NCBI GenBank assembly: GCA_023958085.1
Contig: JAMLGI010000012.1
Coordinates: 1 to 55,469 of the forward strand
Source of the DNA: Solirubrobacterales bacterium
Lineage (GTDB): Bacteria > Actinomycetota > Thermoleophilia > Solirubrobacterales > 70-9
DNA: 55,469 nt
Direction of reading: 5' to 3'
The notes beneath the pieces were generated by a model. It was not told where the DNA came from. It was given only the letters and a program-made list of their open reading frames with translations, and searched no databases. Each line of letters begins with the position of its first letter. Position 1 is the stretch's first letter. The translations under genes were made by a program, and so were the position numbers. Positions 44,337 through 53,024 of this stretch are shown here, piece by piece.

Positions 44337-44401
44337 CCCGCTCCCCCCGAGCGGCCCCGCGGTGTCCGCCCGGGCCGACCGCGCAGACGATCGCCCGAGT
44401 G

Positions 44402-44407
44402 GTATGT
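44402..44407 (+). promoter_or_regulatory. Possible -10 box for the collagen-like operon (TATGTT)
   Basis: TATGTT lies 59 bases before the first collagen-like gene in an otherwise G/C-rich gap. No convincing -35 box. Confidence 0.3.
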
Positions 44408-44466
44408 TCCGCTGAGGCCGCGGTCAGTCCACCGCGAGCCGGAAAATTTGCAAGAGGCGTCAAGGG

Positions 44467-45024
44467 ATGGTGTTGGGAGTGGAGCCAAGCGGTAGCGACT
44501 CGGGTTCGTCCGGCGACGGCGAGCGGCTGGTCATTTCGTTCGACGACGAACCGGAGGGCGCCGAGACCCAGGTGCTCGAGTCGACCGAAGCGGTCGAAGA
44601 GTCCGGATCGAGCGGCCGACGGATCATCGTCGCCGAAGACGAGGAGTACGAGGACGAGTACGACGAGGAGCTCGAGGAGGAGCCGGCGGAAGTTCCACCG
44701 GCCGAACCGAAACCGCCCGGACGAACCAGCGAACTGCTCGACCGGATCGGCCTCCCCGGCAAGCAGCTGGCGCTGCTCGCCGCGGCAGCGGTCGTCGGCT
44801 GTCTGCTGGTCTCGCTGTTCACCGTCTACGCCGTGACCAAGTGGACCCCGCTGCTGCCGGAGCCAGAGGTTGGAAAGATCGGTCCACGAGGAGAGCAGGG
44901 CCTCCCGGGCAAGACCGGATTCCGGGGCAAACGTGGACGACGCGGGCACGAAGGCACCCCCGGCCCGCAAGGAGTTGAGGGTCCTCGCGGGGCCGATGGC
45001 GAAGCGACTCTGGAGGAGTACTGA
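44467..45024 (+). CDS. Membrane-anchored collagen-like protein 1
   Basis: 185 residues. A 100-residue cytoplasmic tail contains a very acidic stretch (EDEEYEDEYDEELEEEP), then one membrane helix at about 101-123, a 12-residue spacer and exactly 15 uninterrupted Gly-X-Y triplets (136-180), ending TLEEY. Orientation N-in/C-out is inferred from the Arg/Lys residues before the helix. Triplets include several Gly-Pro-Arg/Gln and Gly-Lys/Arg units, able to form a collagen triple helix. No cysteine in the external tail, unlike the next two proteins. It is the first of three overlapping genes. Confidence 0.85.
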   Translation: MVLGVEPSGSDSGSSGDGERLVISFDDEPEGAETQVLESTEAVEESGSSGRRIIVAEDEEYEDEYDEELEEEPAEVPPAEPKPPGRTSELLDRIGLPGKQLALLAAAAVVGCLLVSLFTVYAVTKWTPLLPEPEVGKIGPRGEQGLPGKTGFRGKRGRRGHEGTPGPQGVEGPRGADGEATLEEY

Positions 45025-45389
45025 TGAGCGAGGAAGGCACCCGGAACCGCAGCCTGAAGGACGTGGCGACCCCGGCTCAGTGGCGGAACTGGATCCTGAT
45101 CGGGATCCTCGCCACCATGCTGGTCACCACTCTTTCCCTGGTTGTGGTGGCCAACAGCACCGAGATTCTGCAGCGGGGACCGCAGGGCGCGATCGGCAAG
45201 CGGGGTGAACCCGGCGAACGCGGCCAGAGAGGACCACGCGGGTTCCCGGGCAAGCGGGGCGGCGACGGTCCGCAGGGACCGGCGGGACCGGCGGGAGCGT
45301 CCGGGGCCAGCGCAAGCGCGCCCTGCGATGCCGATCCAATTGCCAAGAATCCGTCGCAAGGCGGCTGGCCCTACCCGATCTGCCCGTGA
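45024..45389 (+). CDS. Membrane-anchored collagen-like protein 2
   Basis: 121 residues. Short cytoplasmic N-terminus, one membrane helix at about 23-43, then exactly 15 Gly-X-Y triplets (52-96) and a tail with two cysteines (APCDADP ... PICP). Its ATG shares one base with the stop of gene 1. The triplets are rich in Gly-Glu-Pro, Gly-Lys-Arg and Gly-Pro-Ala. A disulfide in the tail could register or lock chains after assembly. Confidence 0.85.
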
Positions 45390-45733
45390 CCATGACTTCC
45401 GAACCAGGCAAGAAAGACAACCCCCGGAGCACCCCCATGGACAAGACCGAAAAGATCATGGCCGCAGTCATCGGCGGGGTGGCGATTCTCGCCATTGCCC
45501 TGTTCTCGATCTTCGCGATCGGTGCCTGGACCAATGTGATGCCGGTCGGGGCCACCGGTCCCGCCGGCGCGGTCGGACCCAATGGCATAGTGGGGAAGGA
45601 GGGGCCCCGAGGACGCAAGGGTCGGCCGGGCCCGCAAGGTGACCCCGGACCCCAGGGACCTTCTGGCCCAGCCGGCGAGGATGTCTGTGACAACCCGGGC
45701 AGCAGCGTCGAGTACTTCGTCTGCGGCTACTGA
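45386..45733 (+). CDS. Membrane-anchored collagen-like protein 3
   Basis: 115 residues from a GTG that overlaps the gene-2 stop as GTGA. One membrane helix at about 25-46, exactly 15 Gly-X-Y triplets (55-99), then a tail with two cysteines (DVCDNPG ... FVCGY) matching the tail design of protein 2. The triplet region is the most proline-rich of the three. The gene ends 9 bases from the convergent RING-protein gene. Confidence 0.85.
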
Positions 45734-45742
45734 AAGTCGGAA

Positions 45743-46660
45743 CTACTTTCCGGCTTCGGCGTTCCGGGCGAACTCCCGGGCGATCATTCCGGCCCGGGTA
45801 GCTGAACGCGACCCGACGACCACGGTCATGCCGCCGCCGCTGCCGTCGGACATGATCAGCTTGGCGCAGTAGATCCCGGCACAGTCGTCGGGCCCGTTCC
45901 GGAACCGGATCAGGTCGGCGACCCGCATGTTCCTGGAGCGAACCCGACTGTTCGGGAGTCGCTTCTCGTTGATCGTGTAGCTGGCCTCATCCTCAACCGG
46001 GTCGGAATCCGGCGTGGTGACCACCCCGACGAAGTCCCGTCCGGGCCCGGACAGGGTGGTGATCCGGGTTTCCGGACCCTCCGGGTCCGACCGGTCCTTC
46101 GGTCCGCTCCAGCCGCGGCCCCGGGGCAGCACCGCACCCCACTGCCCGCCCGGATCCTCGGTCCAGCGGAAACCGAGTTGATCCCGCATCCGGGCGAGGC
46201 GGATCGCCTGCTTGCGGCGGGCGGCGGCCCGCTTTTCGGCCTTGACCTGATTTGCGGTCTTCTTCGGCGGCTTTTTCGCGGGCGGGGCCGGTTCCGGTTC
46301 ATCCTGGCCGGTGAGGGCGATCGCCACAACCACCCCGGCGAGCAGGACGACCCCGGCGACAAGCGAACCAAGCTGGATCTGCCGACGCCGCCGGTCCGGA
46401 TCTGGCTCCGGGTCCGCAGCCGGGGCTGCCTCTCCGTCCACGGCGATGACCATCCGGGATGATTCCGCCGGGGAGTCCGGTGCTCCGGCCTGTCCGCCGC
46501 AGCCGAAGACCGCGCAACCCTCGTTCTCGATCCAGCACTCCCGGTGGTAGACCGAGTCGCATTCGGGGCAGGCCATGCGTTCGTCCCCGTCGAGCAGGGG
46601 CGTCTGACAGTACGGGCAGATCCAATCCGGCTTCCCGTCCACGATCCCGGGATCGTCCAT
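45743..46660 (-). CDS. Transmembrane protein with N-terminal RING-type zinc finger (RING-TM 2)
   Basis: 305 residues. Eight zinc ligands Cys15, Cys18, Cys31, Cys34, His39, Cys42, Cys49, Cys54 in the order C-x2-C-x12-C-x2-C-x4-H-x2-C-x6-C-x4-C, a prokaryotic RING/treble-clef arrangement. A linker leads to one membrane helix at about 97-117, a Lys/Ala-rich coiled segment, and an external domain of about 130 residues (FRWTEDPGG, SRNMRVADLIRF, GIYCAKLIM). Last gene of the ubiquitin-like operon, 6 bases after the sister gene. In this context it is a candidate membrane E3 ligase or adaptor with an external sensor. Confidence 0.8.
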   Translation of the reverse strand: MDDPGIVDGKPDWICPYCQTPLLDGDERMACPECDSVYHRECWIENEGCAVFGCGGQAGAPDSPAESSRMVIAVDGEAAPAADPEPDPDRRRRQIQLGSLVAGVVLLAGVVVAIALTGQDEPEPAPPAKKPPKKTANQVKAEKRAAARRKQAIRLARMRDQLGFRWTEDPGGQWGAVLPRGRGWSGPKDRSDPEGPETRITTLSGPGRDFVGVVTTPDSDPVEDEASYTINEKRLPNSRVRSRNMRVADLIRFRNGPDDCAGIYCAKLIMSDGSGGGMTVVVGSRSATRAGMIAREFARNAEAGK

Positions 46661-46666
46661 CGGCTT

Positions 46667-47653
46667 CTACTTGCAGCCGGGCCGGAAGAGCTGGTCACCC
46701 TGACCGCCCCAGTCCTTGAGGCGCTGCGGGGTGACGTCGACTCCGGGTTCGTAGGTCCAGCGCTGCCGGGTCGGATCCCATTTGGCCCAGGTGATCCCCC
46801 CGCGGGACTGGCAGAGATCCCTTGGGTCGTTGTACGGCATCTCGCCCAGGTACACGGTCACCACCCCCTCCTCCGGGTAGTCCGGTTGCTTGAGGGTGGC
46901 CCGGAGACCGCTGGGGTCGAGATGCTTGGCCAGACTGCGGTAGTTGTTCCAGAACGAGTAGCGGTCGCCGCCGGCTTCCCGGATCTGGGTCCGCTTGCGC
47001 TCCGAGAGGTTCTCCCAGATCGTGCCGGCATCGAAGCCGCGAACGTCGCTGAACCAGTCCTGCATGAAGTTCTGGACCTCGCGGGCCATCTCCGCCCTGG
47101 GGATGTTCGGCAGGCGACCGTTGTCGTAGCAGGGCACCCCGTCCTTCCCGGTTCCCTGCTCGCACTTGACCTCGTCCTTCGGGTTGCCGTCACCGAAGGT
47201 GTTGGACACGATCAGGATGCCGATCAGGGCGCAGAAGGCGGCCACCCCGACCGCGATCCACCAGGGCGACCGGTCCACCCTGGCGACCGGCTCGGCCGGC
47301 GGCGGGGCCGTTCGGGCGCGGTCAGGCTCGGGGGCGATCCGCCGGCGGGGCCGCCGGGGCGGGGCGGGCTCGATCTTCTGCTTCTTCGCTGAAGGACCGG
47401 CCTTCGGCGGCACGGTCGAACCGGCCCGCGACGGCACCGCCCGATCGGTCGTCTCGGCACCCTTCGCTCCGGCGCAGCCTTCAACCGCGCAGCCGCCGGC
47501 GTCCTCCCAACAGTCCTGATGGTGAGTGGTGCCGCAGACCCCGCAGGTGGCGATCTCGTCCCGCTCCTTGATCGGGAACTTGCAGTGGGGGCAGGAGCGA
47601 CCGGTCTGGCTCCTGCCCGCCGTGCCCCGCCGGGGTCCCTTGGTGCTCATCAT
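46667..47653 (-). CDS. Transmembrane protein with N-terminal RING-type zinc finger (RING-TM 1)
   Basis: 328 residues. Zinc ligands Cys21, Cys24, Cys37, Cys40, His45, Cys48, Cys55, Cys60 have exactly the same spacing as in the sister protein at 45743. A proline/arginine-rich linker (about 70-125) precedes one membrane helix at 131-150. The external part of about 175 residues (IPRAEMAREVQNFM, WENLSERKRTQIREAG) resembles small helical-beta extracellular domains but I recognise no family. ATGATG at the start overlaps the JAB stop. The layout suggests the RING faces the cytoplasm and can meet the E2 proteins. Confidence 0.8.
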   Translation of the reverse strand: MMSTKGPRRGTAGRSQTGRSCPHCKFPIKERDEIATCGVCGTTHHQDCWEDAGGCAVEGCAGAKGAETTDRAVPSRAGSTVPPKAGPSAKKQKIEPAPPRRPRRRIAPEPDRARTAPPPAEPVARVDRSPWWIAVGVAAFCALIGILIVSNTFGDGNPKDEVKCEQGTGKDGVPCYDNGRLPNIPRAEMAREVQNFMQDWFSDVRGFDAGTIWENLSERKRTQIREAGGDRYSFWNNYRSLAKHLDPSGLRATLKQPDYPEEGVVTVYLGEMPYNDPRDLCQSRGGITWAKWDPTRQRWTYEPGVDVTPQRLKDWGGQGDQLFRPGCK

Positions 47654-48198
47654 CGGTACTCGTCCTCCTGCGCTGATTGGCTTGGGTTTTCAAGTTCATC
47701 GAGGCTGGCCATGCTCCAGCCGAGCGGGGTGCGCCGCACGAACCGCTCGATCACCTCGCCGTCGTCCCAGGTGAAGACTCCCTCGATCCCGGCGATCGGA
47801 TCGACCACGTGGGCGATCTGCGACGGGTCGTTGAAGAAGTTGTGGTGAATGAAGAGATCGTGTTCGGAAAGGAAGATCCCGAAGCCGGGGTGGCTGTGGT
47901 ACCAGCCGACGATGTCGGCTGCCGGATACCTCTCCTCCATCACCCGGTGAACGTGTTCCCAGCTGTCCTGGGTGAAGGTCAGGGTGGCCCGCTGTTCGTC
48001 GGCACTGATCGCGTGGATCGCCGCGTAGATCAACGGCAGATCGCCACGGGTCGATTTGTGCCCGACCAGCACCCCGCCGACCTCGCGGTCCCGGTTGTTG
48101 AAGACATGGGGAAAGATGTAGCTGCGGTCGATCTCGTCGAGCTGTGACTTGAAGCCGTCCAGGTCCCATTCCGCTTCCTCCCGATGTTCCTGGCTCAT
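47650..48198 (-). CDS. JAB/JAMM (MPN+) metalloprotease, predicted Ubl-specific isopeptidase
   Basis: 182 residues, complete JAMM site: Glu39 in REVGGVLVG, then His101-x-His103, seven residues, Ser111-x2-Asp114 (HSHPGFGIFLSEHD). This is the zinc protease fold of Rpn11/CSN5-type deubiquitinases and of bacterial homologues that process ubiquitin-like proteins. Here the modifier has no C-terminal extension, so the enzyme would remove the modifier from targets rather than mature it. It overlaps the E2 gene upstream and the RING gene downstream by four bases each. Confidence 0.92.
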   Translation of the reverse strand: MSQEHREEAEWDLDGFKSQLDEIDRSYIFPHVFNNRDREVGGVLVGHKSTRGDLPLIYAAIHAISADEQRATLTFTQDSWEHVHRVMEERYPAADIVGWYHSHPGFGIFLSEHDLFIHHNFFNDPSQIAHVVDPIAGIEGVFTWDDGEVIERFVRRTPLGWSMASLDELENPSQSAQEDEYR

Positions 48199-48710
48199 CG
48201 TCCGGACTCCGTGATCAGAACTTGCGGCTCTGCGGCCGGTCCGGCCACGTCCACTCCGAGGATCTCCTCGCAGTCGAAGCCGGGCTCGATCCCCAGCCGG
48301 GAGACCCAGGCGGCCGCATCGGTGTCGAGGGCATCCTCGATGCTGAAGGAACCGTAGGAAACGAGGTCGATCAGTCGAACCACCAGGTCCGGCAGGCTCT
48401 CCGACGCCGACCAGTCCCCGATACACACCCCGCCGTTCCGATCCGGTCCGAGAATGTTGGGGTGAAAGATCGGGGTCTGCCAGGTGATCACCGGCGGCCG
48501 ACGGGGATACTCGCGATGGAGGTAGATCTCGCAACGGTGCTGGTCCGCCACGGCGACCCGGCGATTCTCCAGTCGGATGCCTGGAGCCGTGAAGCTGACC
48601 GTGTACCGGTCGGGAGGATCTCCGTTCGGCTCGAACGTGAAGAGGCCGGTTTCGGCCCGTTCACCCATCTGATGGGCATCGGCCTCCAGCCTTCGCAGCC
48701 GGGGGTTCAC
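48195..48710 (-). CDS. E2-like ubiquitin-conjugating enzyme (UBC fold), copy A
   Basis: 171 residues from a GTG that overlaps the E1 stop as GTGA. HPN motif at 83-85 (TPIFHPNI) and the expected catalytic Cys96 in GGVCIGDW, with a following conserved Trp100, as in active E2 enzymes. YPRRPPVITW is the strand before HPN. It should accept the modifier from the E1 as a thioester. The C-terminal 40 residues after the UBC core are of unknown role. Copy B is encoded at the head of the operon. Confidence 0.88.
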   Translation of the reverse strand: MNPRLRRLEADAHQMGERAETGLFTFEPNGDPPDRYTVSFTAPGIRLENRRVAVADQHRCEIYLHREYPRRPPVITWQTPIFHPNILGPDRNGGVCIGDWSASESLPDLVVRLIDLVSYGSFSIEDALDTDAAAWVSRLGIEPGFDCEEILGVDVAGPAAEPQVLITESGR

Positions 48711-49894
48711 GCCACCACTCCCGCTCCGCGCTCCACCGGTTCGAGACGGAAGAAGATCCGCTCGAAGCCGAGCCGTCCGACCAGGACGTCCTGCTCCGGC
48801 AACCCGATCCCGGCCGCGGTCTCGCCCGCAAGCGGCGAGTCGTCCTCGACCGCGTGGGCGAACTCGATCTGCCAGGGCTCGCCGCAGTCGGGGCAGCTTC
48901 CGTCGGTGGCGGTGAGCGCATCGAGAGGGCGCAGGAACCGCCCCGATCCGCCGCAGGCGGCACACTCCGCTCCCACCGCGATCTCCTGTTCCAGCTCCAG
49001 CACCGCCTCCGGACCGAGACGGCCCCGGGCTCTGCCGAGCAGCTCGCCGAGGGTCATGTCGGGACCGACCGTCTCGGCTGCGGAAAGGTCGTAGCTGTCG
49101 TGGCTCAGGCAGTCCTCCCGCGGGGCGTAACGCACCACATAGGAGTCGTGGGTGAGGCCGACGAAACTGAAGCCGGCTCCGGCCAGGGTCGGTTCCCCCA
49201 GCCGGTCCCGGTGAAGCAGCTTGACCGCCTCCTGCACCTGAATCCCGCCGATCACGCTGGCGGTCGTCGCGTTGGTCGGGACCTTGCCCTCAAGCATCTC
49301 CTCCCGGCTGAGCAGGGCGCAGGAACGACGGGCCGCGACCAGTTGGTGGTCGCGCTCGTTCATGGTGCACTCGTAGCAGGCCGTATCCGGCGGGATGAAC
49401 ACGCGAACGGTGCCCATCAGGCCCTCGATCGCGCCGTCGATCCAGGGGGTCCCGGTCTTCCAGCAGGCCTGGTTCACGTACAGCCGGGCCTCCCGGTTGT
49501 CCAGTCCGGCGATCACCAGGTCGGCGTCGGCGAAGCGGCCCAGCCCGAGTGAGAGCCGAACGTCCCCGGTCACCGCCTCAATCTCCACATCGGGGTTCAT
49601 CCCGATCACACGCTCGGCCAGAACCTCGGCCTTCTTCCGGCCCTCGTCACTCTCCCGGAAGAACACACAGCGGGCCAGGTTCGAGTTCTCGATCTCGTCC
49701 ATGTCGACCACCACGATGTGACCGACTCCCATCAGGGTGAGGTTCTTGACAATCTCGTTGCCGAGTGCGCCCGCCCCGACGACGATCACCCTGGCCGCGG
49801 CCAGACGGGGCTGATCCCACCAGCTGATCAGGCTCTGTCGGTGGTAGCGGTCGTGCTCGTCCTCGAGCTCGATCTTGACCCGGCCCCGGGACAT
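48707..49894 (-). CDS. E1-like ubiquitin-activating enzyme (ThiF/MoeB fold)
   Basis: 395 residues. Rossmann nucleotide site GAGALGNE at 40-47, acidic DMDEIE at 64-69, NSNLAR at 70-75 and Asp132 in LDNREAR are the ThiF/E1 adenylation residues. CYEC at 173-176 and Cys192 in RRSCALL fall where the zinc or catalytic cysteine lies in E1 proteins. A C-terminal extension has two CxxC pairs (311/314 and 334/337), a second zinc ribbon not found in MoeB/ThiF. It should adenylate the C-terminal glycine of the neighbouring modifier and pass it to an E2. Confidence 0.9.
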   Translation of the reverse strand: MSRGRVKIELEDEHDRYHRQSLISWWDQPRLAAARVIVVGAGALGNEIVKNLTLMGVGHIVVVDMDEIENSNLARCVFFRESDEGRKKAEVLAERVIGMNPDVEIEAVTGDVRLSLGLGRFADADLVIAGLDNREARLYVNQACWKTGTPWIDGAIEGLMGTVRVFIPPDTACYECTMNERDHQLVAARRSCALLSREEMLEGKVPTNATTASVIGGIQVQEAVKLLHRDRLGEPTLAGAGFSFVGLTHDSYVVRYAPREDCLSHDSYDLSAAETVGPDMTLGELLGRARGRLGPEAVLELEQEIAVGAECAACGGSGRFLRPLDALTATDGSCPDCGEPWQIEFAHAVEDDSPLAGETAAGIGLPEQDVLVGRLGFERIFFRLEPVERGAGVVA

Positions 49895-49899
49895 CGGCC

Positions 49900-50160
49900 T
49901 CAGCCGGCGGTGATCTCTGCGACCAGACGGAGCACGTCTCCGTCCTTCACCCCGGCGTCGGCCAGGGTCACGTTGTCGTTGATCTGCAGCCCGGTCTGCT
50001 TGTGGTGGAACTTGTAAGAGAGCGGCTGTCCATCCGGTCCGGTGGCCGGGAGCTTCATCAGTCCGACCAGCTTTCCGATGATTCGGCCCGATGCGACATC
50101 GTCCGGCATCGTCACCTCCTCGGTCTTGTTGCCGGTTGCGTCCACTACAGTCACATCCAT
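49900..50160 (-). CDS. YukD/EsaB-like ubiquitin-like modifier ending in Ala-Gly
   Basis: 86 residues, one beta-grasp domain: MDVTVVDATGNKTEEVTMPD, a helix with GRIIGKLVGLMKLP, SYKFHHKQTGLQI and DVLRLVAEITAG. The LPATGPDGQPLSYKF segment is typical of the YukD group. The protein ends exactly with AG, giving a free C-terminal glycine as an E1 requires and needing no proteolytic maturation. Internal lysines (Lys12, 30, 36, 50, 54, 72) would allow chains. A strong AAGGAGG precedes the ATG, consistent with high expression of the modifier compared with its enzymes. Confidence 0.88.
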   Translation of the reverse strand: MDVTVVDATGNKTEEVTMPDDVASGRIIGKLVGLMKLPATGPDGQPLSYKFHHKQTGLQINDNVTLADAGVKDGDVLRLVAEITAG

Positions 50161-50196
50161 CTGCGTTTTCCTCCTTGGGTGATAGCGGGCATCAGT

Positions 50197-50769
50197 TCAC
50201 TCACTCGGGTCGGCCGAATGGACCAGGACATCGAAATCCGAATCTCCTCCGGTCGTTCCCATCGAGATCTCCTCGACTCCGAGACCTACGTTCCCGACCG
50301 GGAACCTCCCGGTGCCTTCCTGGGTGAGCGTCCATCTCGCGGCGAGCGGATCCAGCGGGCTGGCCAGGTTGTAGTCGCGGTACTGGATCATGTCCCCGAT
50401 CTTGGCGATCAGATCGACCAGCCGGGTTGAAGGAGCCCAGTTCTCGTCGTCGACCAGGCAGTAGTACTCCCGGACGTTCGGGTGAAAGATCGGGGATTTC
50501 GGTGCTGCGTAAGGCTTCTCGGCCGGGTAGCGTCGCGGGAGGAGCAACTCCACTTCATGCTCGTCGGCCGAGGCCACCCTGACCCGATCGGTTTCCAGGT
50601 TGCCGGGCCGCTCACCCTCCAGCCGGAGTCCATCCAGCCGGTACCGGATCCGGTAGGTCTCGGGCGGGAGACGGGAACCAACCGGTTCGATCTCGACCCG
50701 GGGATGACCGGAGTAGAGCTCTCGCACCTGGGTGTAGTCAGCCTGAAGGCGCCGCAACCTCGGGTTCAC
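50197..50769 (-). CDS. E2-like protein (UBC fold), copy B
   Basis: 190 residues from a GTG with AGGAG upstream. N-terminus MNPRLRRLQAD matches copy A (MNPRLRRLEAD). HPN at 96-98 (SPIFHPNV) and Cys104 in EYYCLVDDENW, with Trp111, occupy the E2 active-site positions, but the HPN-to-Cys gap is 5 residues here and 10 in copy A. It may be a second active E2 with another target range, or a non-catalytic partner as in UEV proteins, although the cysteine is kept. First gene of the seven-gene operon. Confidence 0.8.
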   Translation of the reverse strand: MNPRLRRLQADYTQVRELYSGHPRVEIEPVGSRLPPETYRIRYRLDGLRLEGERPGNLETDRVRVASADEHEVELLLPRRYPAEKPYAAPKSPIFHPNVREYYCLVDDENWAPSTRLVDLIAKIGDMIQYRDYNLASPLDPLAARWTLTQEGTGRFPVGNVGLGVEEISMGTTGGDSDFDVLVHSADPSE

Positions 50770-50853
50770 GGCCCGTGCTCCTGAACTCTTTCCACAGCTG
50801 GCTCCCCCTGGGGGTCAACCTCGCTCCATGAGGTCGACGATCGGACCAGGCCA

Positions 50854-50859
50854 TGATAG
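50854..50859 (-). promoter_or_regulatory. Possible -10 box of the ubiquitin-like operon (TATCAT)
   Basis: TATCAT on the minus strand, 85 bases upstream of the copy-B E2 gene, in the only gap (50770-50915) before the operon. No clear -35. It implies a leader of about 80 bases. Confidence 0.35.
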
Positions 50860-50915
50860 CCAGAGATCCCCGGTCGACCCCTTCCGGCTCTGTGGATGCC
50901 CAGGGTGCGGGCTGC

Positions 50916-53024
<2,109 letters not shown>

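What the first reader, a model, noticed from the sequence alone, without database searches (positions are those of the whole stretch)
45743..50769. Seven-gene bacterial ubiquitin-like conjugation operon with two transmembrane RING proteins
One tightly packed minus-strand operon encodes E2 copy B, a YukD-like modifier, an E1, E2 copy A, a JAMM isopeptidase and two membrane RING proteins, with start/stop overlaps at three junctions and gaps of 5-36 bases at the others. All active-site residues I can check are in place. This gives a full activation, conjugation, ligation and removal cycle in a bacterium. Comparative genomics has reported prokaryotic E1/E2/JAB/RING neighbourhoods, and BilABCD and Bub systems are characterised in antiphage defence. 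This set differs by its single-domain YukD-like modifier, two E2-like proteins and paired membrane RINGs, and I know of no experimental account of this form.
Basis: partly seen in the sequence, partly recalled or inferred. Interest (0 to 1): 0.95.

Follow-up and report, generated by a model that had tools for sequence, protein, structure and literature searches.

The report
Membrane-linked ubiquitin-like tagging system in bacteria
A compact bacterial operon encodes what looks like a complete ubiquitin-style protein-tagging kit (tag, activator, two carriers, two membrane-anchored ligase-like proteins and a tag remover) of a type that recurs in at least six bacterial groups, has been foreseen by computation but, as far as I could find, never tested at the bench.

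Summary
In detail: seven tightly packed minus-strand genes (50769-45743) encode an E2, a YukD-type ubiquitin-like protein (Ubl), an E1, a second E2, a JAMM peptidase and two membrane RING (Prok-RING_1) proteins, with catalytic residues intact. AlphaFold gives a confident beta-grasp for the Ubl (nearest solved fold: Caldiarchaeum ubiquitin) and an E1 whose C-terminal domain aligns with the E2-recruiting domain of eukaryotic E1s. I collected 82 related loci from at least six bacterial groups. Across 49 of 65 Ubls the tail EITAG is invariant and often followed by a removable extension. Two ancient E2 classes and several membrane RINGs per operon are common, so these do not distinguish the window. 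RING-TM-trypsin fusions and FHA and HtrA-like neighbours point to the cell envelope; I found no sign of phage defence. Many components outside the window carry an acidic SUMO-SIM-like motif (21/37, 21/35, 21/57 tails against 2-3% of controls in the main clade), a possible Ubl-docking code. In the window the operon and three collagen-like genes fill a site that is empty in a same-genus genome. The system type was predicted by Burroughs et al. 2011 (known to me by abstract only); conjugation itself is unshown.

The parts
50197..50769 (-). E2-B, ubiquitin-conjugating-enzyme-like, 190 aa, Cys104, class B
   Evidence: Pfam UQ_con 7.3e-6; profile of its class matches yeast Ubc13 at 2.7e-10; class-B clade, support 0.95
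49900..50160 (-). YukD-type ubiquitin-like modifier, 86 aa, C-terminus ...AEITAG
   Evidence: Pfam YukD 5.5e-12; AlphaFold pLDDT 93.3, beta-grasp; top Foldseek hit Caldiarchaeum ubiquitin 6fnn; invariant EITAG tail
48707..49894 (-). E1 activating enzyme, 395 aa: adenylation domain, Cys192, CxxC/CxxH zinc site, C-terminal UFD-like domain with a C4 zinc knuckle
   Evidence: ThiF 5.2e-57; conservation; AlphaFold pLDDT 91.6, aligned with UBA3 over 13-387 and with UBA1 over 6-386
48195..48710 (-). E2-A, 171 aa, Cys96, class A (HPNILxPxxxGGVC)
   Evidence: Pfam UQ_con 1.2e-8; class-A clade, support 0.95
47650..48198 (-). JAMM isopeptidase, 182 aa
   Evidence: Pfam JAB 3.6e-9; HxHx10D intact; nearest solved relative Caldiarchaeum Rpn11 homologue 6fjv, 3.5e-8
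46667..47653 (-). RING1: C4HC3 Prok-RING_1 domain (aa 18-60), linker, TM 132-150, extracytoplasmic domain of about 178 aa of unknown family
   Evidence: Pfam 7.1e-11; TM and ligand pattern; no significant Pfam match for the last domain
45743..46660 (-). RING2: C4HC3 Prok-RING_1 domain (aa 14-54), TM 100-118, extracytoplasmic domain of about 187 aa
   Evidence: Pfam 3.1e-9; TM; no Pfam match for the last domain
49856..49882 (-). SIM-like motif RVKIELEDE at the disordered E1 N-terminus (aa 5-13)
   Evidence: residues 1-10 pLDDT 52; post hoc in this window
50209..50241 (-). SIM-like motif SDFDVLVHSAD in the E2-B C-terminal tail (aa 177-187)
   Evidence: same place as in class-B E2s elsewhere
48198..48230 (-). 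weak SIM-like C-terminus of E2-A (EPQVLITESGR)
   Evidence: read by eye; not returned by the rules, which flag EEILGVDVAG upstream of it instead
46430..46456 (-). SIM-like RMVIAVDGE between RING and TM of RING2 (aa 69-77)
   Evidence: post hoc
44467..45024 (+). collagen-like TM protein 1, acidic N-terminus with two SIM-like stretches (44524-44550, 44620-44646); convergent neighbour in the same insertion
   Evidence: Pfam Collagen 1.5e-8
45024..45389 (+). collagen-like TM protein 2
   Evidence: Pfam Collagen 8.9e-8
45386..45733 (+). collagen-like TM protein 3, ends 10 bases from RING2
   Evidence: Pfam Collagen 1.5e-8
44337..50918 (.). inserted unit (collagen-like trio plus seven-gene operon) between LLM-type oxidoreductase and glutamate dehydrogenase genes
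   Evidence: same-genus locus L193 has these two flanks 56 bases apart; L192 has other genes there

Best explanation
The operon encodes a ubiquitin-like conjugation cycle that works at the cytoplasmic face of the membrane. The 86-aa YukD-type Ubl, already ending in its mature glycine, is adenylated by the E1 and loaded on E1 Cys192. It is passed, by way of the E1's UFD-like domain, to two E2s of different ancient classes (Cys96, Cys104). E2~Ubl is recruited by the membrane-anchored C4HC3 RING proteins, which place the Ubl on membrane or membrane-proximal substrates; their extracytoplasmic domains sense or hold the client. The JAMM peptidase removes the Ubl (and in relatives also trims the precursor). 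The likely purpose is control of envelope proteins, not phage defence. Shown by computation: genes, folds, active sites, conserved tail, membrane RINGs and spread. Inferred: thioester transfer, E3 activity, substrates and purpose.
For: Gene set, order and active sites. Ubl beta-grasp with pLDDT 93.3, best Foldseek match Caldiarchaeum ubiquitin. E1 model aligned with UBA3 and UBA1 into their UFD. E1 Cys192 invariant in 64 close relatives; E2 HPN/Cys kept in 65-67 of 67. EITAG tail in 49 of 65 Ubls, 26 of them with a C-terminal extension. JAMM motif in 88 of 90. 66 of 67 RINGs C4HC3 and 64 of 67 with TM. RING-TM-Trypsin_2 single chains in six planctomycete loci, RING-TM-NTF2-like (L015), RING-TM-TPR (L143, L007); membrane FHA proteins and membrane trypsins in operons. 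No matches in the plasmid, phage and viral-contig searches. No proteasome-family match in this genome, so proteasomal destruction is unlikely here.
Against: No thioester or conjugate has been shown for any member that I could find. The tail ends in a single Gly, not Gly-Gly (precedents: Atg8/LC3, CBASS cyclases, PMC10097602). The RINGs have C4HC3 ligand order, as in RING-CH and PHD, and PHD-like domains need not be E3s. The luminal domains of the window's RINGs match no family. The envelope role rests on relatives: the window operon itself has no protease or FHA gene.
Confidence: 0.7

Rival explanations
1. It is an antiphage defence system like Bil, Bub or type II CBASS: the Ubl is put on phage or effector proteins during infection.
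For: Patchy spread, absence from sampled same-genus genomes and insertion at a variable site are usual for defence genes. E1 and JAMM match PADLOC E1-E2, BilD and JAB models, weakly. One relative has a PADLOC candidate gene (PDC-S11) between Ubl and E1 (L010).
Against: No CD-NTase or effector gene in the window operon; PADLOC finds no recognisable system in the window flanks that I scanned; flanks in L006 and L010 are housekeeping genes; Ignavibacteria hold E2-JAMM away from Ubl-E1-RING, unlike a mobile defence cassette; no matches on plasmids, phages or viral contigs at the thresholds used. Membrane RINGs with extracytoplasmic domains suit envelope work better. Only a few flanks were examined.
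Confidence: 0.15
2. It is a sulfur-carrier or secretion accessory module: the YukD-like protein serves a type VII secretion-like process, or the E1 works as a MoeB/ThiF for sulfur transfer, and no protein conjugation occurs.
For: YukD/EccD domains belong to type VII secretion, and the Ubl model aligns with EccD5 at Z 11.5; the E1 core is closest in fold to MoeB and ThiF (Z 31).
Against: Two E2s with intact active sites, a JAMM peptidase and RINGs in one operon have no role in sulfur transfer; the E1 has a UFD-like domain; EccD's Ubl domain has no free conserved EITAG tail, to my knowledge; no secretion ATPase in the operon.
Confidence: 0.07
3. The RING-like proteins are not E3s but membrane receptors or clients that dock the conjugate through PHD/FYVE-like zinc fingers; E2s modify targets directly, as SUMO's Ubc9 can.
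For: C4HC3 order, weak PHD and C1 matches, variable luminal domains (protease, TPR, NTF2-like); the two E2 classes could carry specificity themselves.
Against: Pfam places the domain in the prokaryotic RING family; a review describes bacterial RINGs as C4HC3 (PMC11354881); in the core loci a RING gene usually accompanies E1, E2 and JAMM.
Confidence: 0.2

Closest known systems
Prokaryotic YukD-Ubl/E1/E2/RING/JAB neighbourhoods predicted by Burroughs, Iyer and Aravind 2011 (Mol BioSyst 7:2261)
   Same: Same gene types, including membrane RING (Pfam Prok-RING_1 was named from that work, from memory) and a YukD-like Ubl thought to be conjugated
   Different: I could not read the paper, so gene-by-gene comparison is open. 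The invariant EITAG tail, the two E2 clades, RING-protease fusions, SIM-like motifs and the collagen-linked insertion are from this work; I do not know whether any was noted there.
Caldiarchaeum subterraneum ubiquitin operon (archaeal; PMC5654768, PMC6043591)
   Same: Ub, E1, E2, RING, JAMM; the window Ubl's best structural match and the JAMM's best solved relative are both from it; JAMM-trimmed precursor, as in many relatives here
   Different: Archaeal; Gly-Gly tail; one E2; small RING protein, not membrane-anchored; E1-E2-E3-DUB activity shown in vitro
Bil (BilABCD) antiphage system
   Same: Ubl, E1, E2, JAB in one operon
   Different: No RING; BilA is a two-domain ISG15-like Ubl (from memory); antiviral activity shown; here single-domain YukD type, two E2s, membrane RINGs
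Bub (bacterial ubiquitination-like) operons
   Same: Ubl, E1, E2, JAB conjugation machinery
   Different: Often beside CapW, CapH/CapP or CapK/CapS regulators, phage protection not shown (PMC13373217); diverged mechanism (from memory); none of these regulators among the flanking genes annotated here
Type II CBASS Cap2/Cap3
   Same: E1-E2 chemistry and JAB peptidase; single-Gly C-terminus can be a conjugation end (PMC10097602)
   Different: E1 and E2 fused, target is a CD-NTase, no Ubl, no RING
SUMO-interacting motifs and SOB motifs of eukaryotes
   Same: Short acidic-hydrophobic beta-strand motifs in disordered tails of pathway components (PMC12751080); SOB sequences ESEVEVIHV and DSEVEIVTV resemble DDVEIEL
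   Different: Bacterial motif has alternating spacing; binding to the Ubl is not shown

Membership tests
Predicted YukD-type prokaryotic Ub-like conjugation systems (Burroughs 2011) | YukD-like Ubl with free conserved C-terminal Gly | tested here: met
   YukD 5.5e-12; EITAG
Predicted YukD-type prokaryotic Ub-like conjugation systems (Burroughs 2011) | E1 with C-terminal UFD | tested here: met
   AlphaFold model aligned with UBA3 to residue 387 and UBA1 to 386
Predicted YukD-type prokaryotic Ub-like conjugation systems (Burroughs 2011) | E2 with HPN and catalytic Cys | tested here: met
Predicted YukD-type prokaryotic Ub-like conjugation systems (Burroughs 2011) | JAMM peptidase and Prok-RING_1 protein with TM in the same operon | tested here: met
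Predicted YukD-type prokaryotic Ub-like conjugation systems (Burroughs 2011) | Covalent conjugation of the Ubl | not testable with these tools
   needs biochemistry
Caldiarchaeum-type archaeal ubiquitin operon | Mature Ub ends in Gly-Gly | tested here: not met
   ends in Ala-Gly in the window and in all EITAG/VAG relatives
Caldiarchaeum-type archaeal ubiquitin operon | Small RING protein without a membrane anchor | tested here: not met
   328 and 305 aa with TM segment
BilABCD | Four genes, one E2, no RING | tested here: not met
   seven genes, two E2s, two RINGs
BilABCD | PADLOC Bil models cover the components | tested here: inconclusive
   only the E1 matches BilD, 4.2e-8, over 114 residues; models date from 2023
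Type II CBASS Cap2/Cap3 | E1-E2 fusion beside a CD-NTase | tested here: not met
   E1 and E2 are separate genes and none of the seven operon proteins is a CD-NTase
Bub | Neighbouring CapW, CapH/CapP or CapK/CapS regulator genes (an association, not a requirement) | tested here: inconclusive
   upstream neighbour is glutamate dehydrogenase; no search for these regulators was run; membership by sequence not testable, Bub papers not held

The most novel reading that the evidence does not exclude
A widespread bacterial, membrane-tethered ubiquitin-like system in which the YukD-type Ubl is not only conjugated but also read non-covalently by SIM-like motifs on E1, E2, JAMM and envelope proteins (membrane proteases, FHA proteins, here perhaps a collagen-like surface protein), so that tagging in the cytoplasm is coupled to proteins acting outside the membrane: a bacterial counterpart of eukaryotic membrane RING ligases plus SUMO-type reading.
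Probability: 0.3. Interest if true: 0.88.

Novelty: new member of a known kind. Interest (0 to 1): 0.62.

Why it matters
A 2014 survey concluded that no analysed bacterial genome held a complete ubiquitin toolkit (PMC4327156). Here a complete set, with RING-like proteins, belongs to a family whose E1 is found in about one to fifteen percent of sampled genomes in five taxonomic groups, with a Ubl strongly conserved between phyla. If active, it would be a bacterial E1-E2-RING-JAMM cycle tied to the membrane and to extracytoplasmic proteases, which makes testable how RING-dependent tagging and SIM-type reading arose. The recurring tail motif gives a cheap first experiment.

Tried and rejected
Antiphage island: PADLOC on the operon and on six window flanking genes gave only generic E1-E2/JAB matches and a methyltransferase match. 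Plasmid, phage and viral-contig searches: no match at the thresholds used. Proteasome link: no PF00227 match in this genome or in G081 of the same order; other genomes match, but the model also matches E. coli and B. subtilis, so HslV-like proteins may explain it. Identity of the RING luminal domains: no significant Pfam match; not folded, for lack of homologues. A natural Ubl-E2 fusion (L171) was considered as a docking test and dropped because it is too diverged. Type VII secretion: not searched genome-wide. Whole genome as file: not available. The SIM-like motif in the window alone is weak: 7 matches against 3.0 expected by shuffling, 1.2% of shuffles reach it, rule chosen post hoc; outside Armatimonadota-type loci the enrichment is modest (Fisher p 0.07, 0.02, 0.008). 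GC content of the insertion does not differ from its surroundings.
Full report
OBSERVATION. In order of transcription: E2-B 50769-50197, Ubl 50160-49900, E1 49894-48707, E2-A 48710-48195 (GTG start), JAMM 48198-47650, RING1 47653-46667, RING2 46660-45743. Three junctions overlap by 4 bases; the others have gaps of 36, 5 and 6 bases. Pfam names all seven, E2-B just below its curated cut-off. A profile of E2-B's class matches eukaryotic Ubc13 at 2.7e-10.

ACTIVE SITES. I aligned the proteins with those of 82 other loci. The two E2s keep HPN and Cys (Cys96 in E2-A, Cys104 in E2-B); across 67 E2s the Cys is kept in 66. E1 keeps the GxGxxG region, Asp132/Arg137 and Cys192, invariant in 64 close relatives, and cysteines 173, 176 and 262 with His265, plus a second C4 site (311, 314, 334, 337). 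The JAMM motif H-S-H-x10-D is intact, as in 88 of 90 relatives. Both RINGs show C-x2-C, C-x2-C, H-x2-C, C-xn-C (C4HC3), the order a review gives for bacterial RINGs (PMC11354881).

STRUCTURE. AlphaFold2 with 34 sequences gives the Ubl a mean pLDDT of 93.3 and a beta-beta-alpha-beta-beta order. Foldseek's first PDB match is Caldiarchaeum ubiquitin (6fnn, E 8e-6), with NEDD8 and ubiquitin close behind; in the second look EccD5 of ESX-5 and many ubiquitin-fold proteins tie at Z 10.6-11.5. The E1 model (pLDDT 91.6, 47 sequences) aligns over residues 13-387 with UBA3 (2nvu, Z 29.8) and 6-386 with UBA1 (4ii2, Z 27.6), that is, through the ubiquitin-fold domain that recruits E2 in eukaryotes. Its first ten residues are not ordered (pLDDT 52).

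TAIL OF THE MODIFIER. In 49 of 65 Ubls the protein ends, or is followed by an extension, right after EITAG; ten more have VAG there. 26 of the 49 have one or more extra residues of unrelated sequence (S, RF, SIHR, TGLGSATGE and so on), 23 end at the glycine, as in the window. This is what a trimmed precursor would look like, as in Caldiarchaeum, where Rpn11 does the trimming (PMC5654768). The end is a single glycine; single-glycine ends are used by Atg8 and CBASS cyclases (PMC10097602). In the window no trimming is needed.

SPREAD. E1 relatives at E below 1e-50 occur in 24 of 343 Planctomycetota, 38 of 251 genomes of the phylum of L007 (Armatimonadetes by its record title), 8 of 119 of the Ignavibacteria class and 10 of 247 Acidobacteriota; at E below 1e-40 in 4 of 299 of the window's own class; two Clostridia also have it. 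Of the eight other same-genus genomes searched for the E1, none has it. The window's E1 groups with those of Patulibacter (L009) and L025, next to Clostridia and among Armatimonadota, so transfer between phyla is likely.

WHAT IS NOT SPECIAL. E2-A and E2-B fall into two old clades (support 0.95 each), and L007, L141, L143, L160, L162 and L163 also have both kinds (the class-B E2 of L160 is short and is judged from its motif). Operons with two or three membrane RINGs are common; 64 of 67 RING proteins have a TM segment (Kyte-Doolittle only). Some Armatimonadota operons carry three JAMM genes.

ENVELOPE LINK. Six planctomycete loci encode one chain of RING, TM segments and a Trypsin_2 domain (E 7e-19 to 2e-23); L015 has RING-TM-NTF2-like; L007 and L143 have RING-TM-TPR. 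Operons L007 and L010 hold a separate membrane trypsin, and L007 and L016 a membrane FHA protein, clustered with genes in L012 and L013. In the window, each RING has one TM and an extracytoplasmic domain of 178-187 residues without significant Pfam match. Topology is inferred: RING must be cytoplasmic to meet E2. I infer a role in the control of envelope proteins. No proteasome match was found in the window's genome (95% complete) or in G081 of the same order, so destruction by proteasome is not the likely outcome here.

SIM-LIKE MOTIF. Tails of E1 (N), E2-B (C), JAMM (N), the membrane trypsin (C) and the FHA protein (N) repeat a pattern such as DDLDIEL, EEIEIELL, LDIDLEED. I noticed the pattern first and then wrote the rule, and a first, stricter rule was loosened and re-run, so the counts are not from an independent test. 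With the second rule, in Armatimonadota-type loci 21/37 E1, 21/35 E2 and 21/57 JAMM tails match, against 4-6 of 204 control termini (Fisher p 1.5e-16, 6.7e-16, 3.0e-12; related sequences, so these overstate independence) and shuffle means of 1-2. In other phyla it is weak: 2/40, 4/34, 3/33. With the first rule and all loci together: 18/77, 23/69, 14/90 against about 1-3% of controls. In the window itself E2-B's C-terminal tail matches in the expected place (GDSDFDVLVHSAD), and a second match lies in E2-A's tail (CEEILGVDVAGPA); looser forms occur in E1, RING2 and collagen-like protein 1 (about 1% of shuffles, post hoc). SUMO's SIMs are loose, acidic-hydrophobic and are found in the SUMO E1 and E3s (PMC12751080). 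Binding to this Ubl is a hypothesis; its conserved basic residues K50, H53, K54 and R78 are a candidate site.

INSERTION. In same-genus locus L193 the LLM-type oxidoreductase and glutamate dehydrogenase genes are 56 bases apart; in L192 other genes lie between; in the window the three collagen-like genes and the operon lie between. The first collagen-like protein was found in no other of 18 same-genus genomes, and no ORF with long Gly-X-X runs occurs in the other 82 loci. The trio and operon may have arrived together, but one empty site does not prove one event.

KNOWN OR NEW. The Caldiarchaeum system is the closest one tested at the bench, but differs in its Gly-Gly tail, single E2 and small RING. 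Bil, Bub and CBASS lack RINGs, as far as I know. The kind of system was predicted in 2011 (Burroughs et al.; not held; abstract from memory; the reference is confirmed). Paper searches found no experiment on it; the library is incomplete. I therefore call it a new member of a known, predicted kind. The leads I have not seen elsewhere are the tail, the RING-protease fusions, the SIM-like code and the collagen-linked insertion.

Noticed in passing
window 44467-45733, + strand: Three consecutive collagen-like single-TM proteins (Gly-X-X runs of 15) with overlapping starts and stops, ending 10 bases from the Ubl operon; the first was found in no other sampled same-genus genome.
   Followed up: partly
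L013 14937-16301, L072, L073, L074, L076, L084: RING domain, TM segments and an extracytoplasmic trypsin-like protease in one chain in Planctomycetota.
   Followed up: partly
L010 8881-9972: A 363-aa protein (PADLOC PDC-S11 candidate, weak NucS match) sits between Ubl and E1 in one locus; absent there in the close relative L011.
   Followed up: no
L067, L068, L069: In Ignavibacteria the E2 and JAMM genes form a pair away from the Ubl-E1-RING genes in the same genomes.
   Followed up: partly
L167-L170: Armatimonadota E1-like genes without any recognised Ubl, E2, JAMM or RING nearby.
   Followed up: no
L021-L023 (Nitrosotenuis/Nitrosotalea): Thaumarchaeal E1-like protein (33-36% identity to the window E1) in a conserved gene block (clusters cl9-cl13) in which none of the other components was recognised.
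   Followed up: no
L013, L016, L072, L076: Planctomycete and acidobacterial class-B E2s carry long cysteine-rich, probably zinc-binding C-terminal extensions.
   Followed up: no
L078, L080, L082, L161: Another E2 subgroup ends in tails such as EDILIIE or DDLLVIE, closer to the classical SIM pattern.
   Followed up: no
L192 9262-12364: The same chromosomal site in another same-genus genome holds unrelated small genes, so it may be an insertion-prone site.
   Followed up: no
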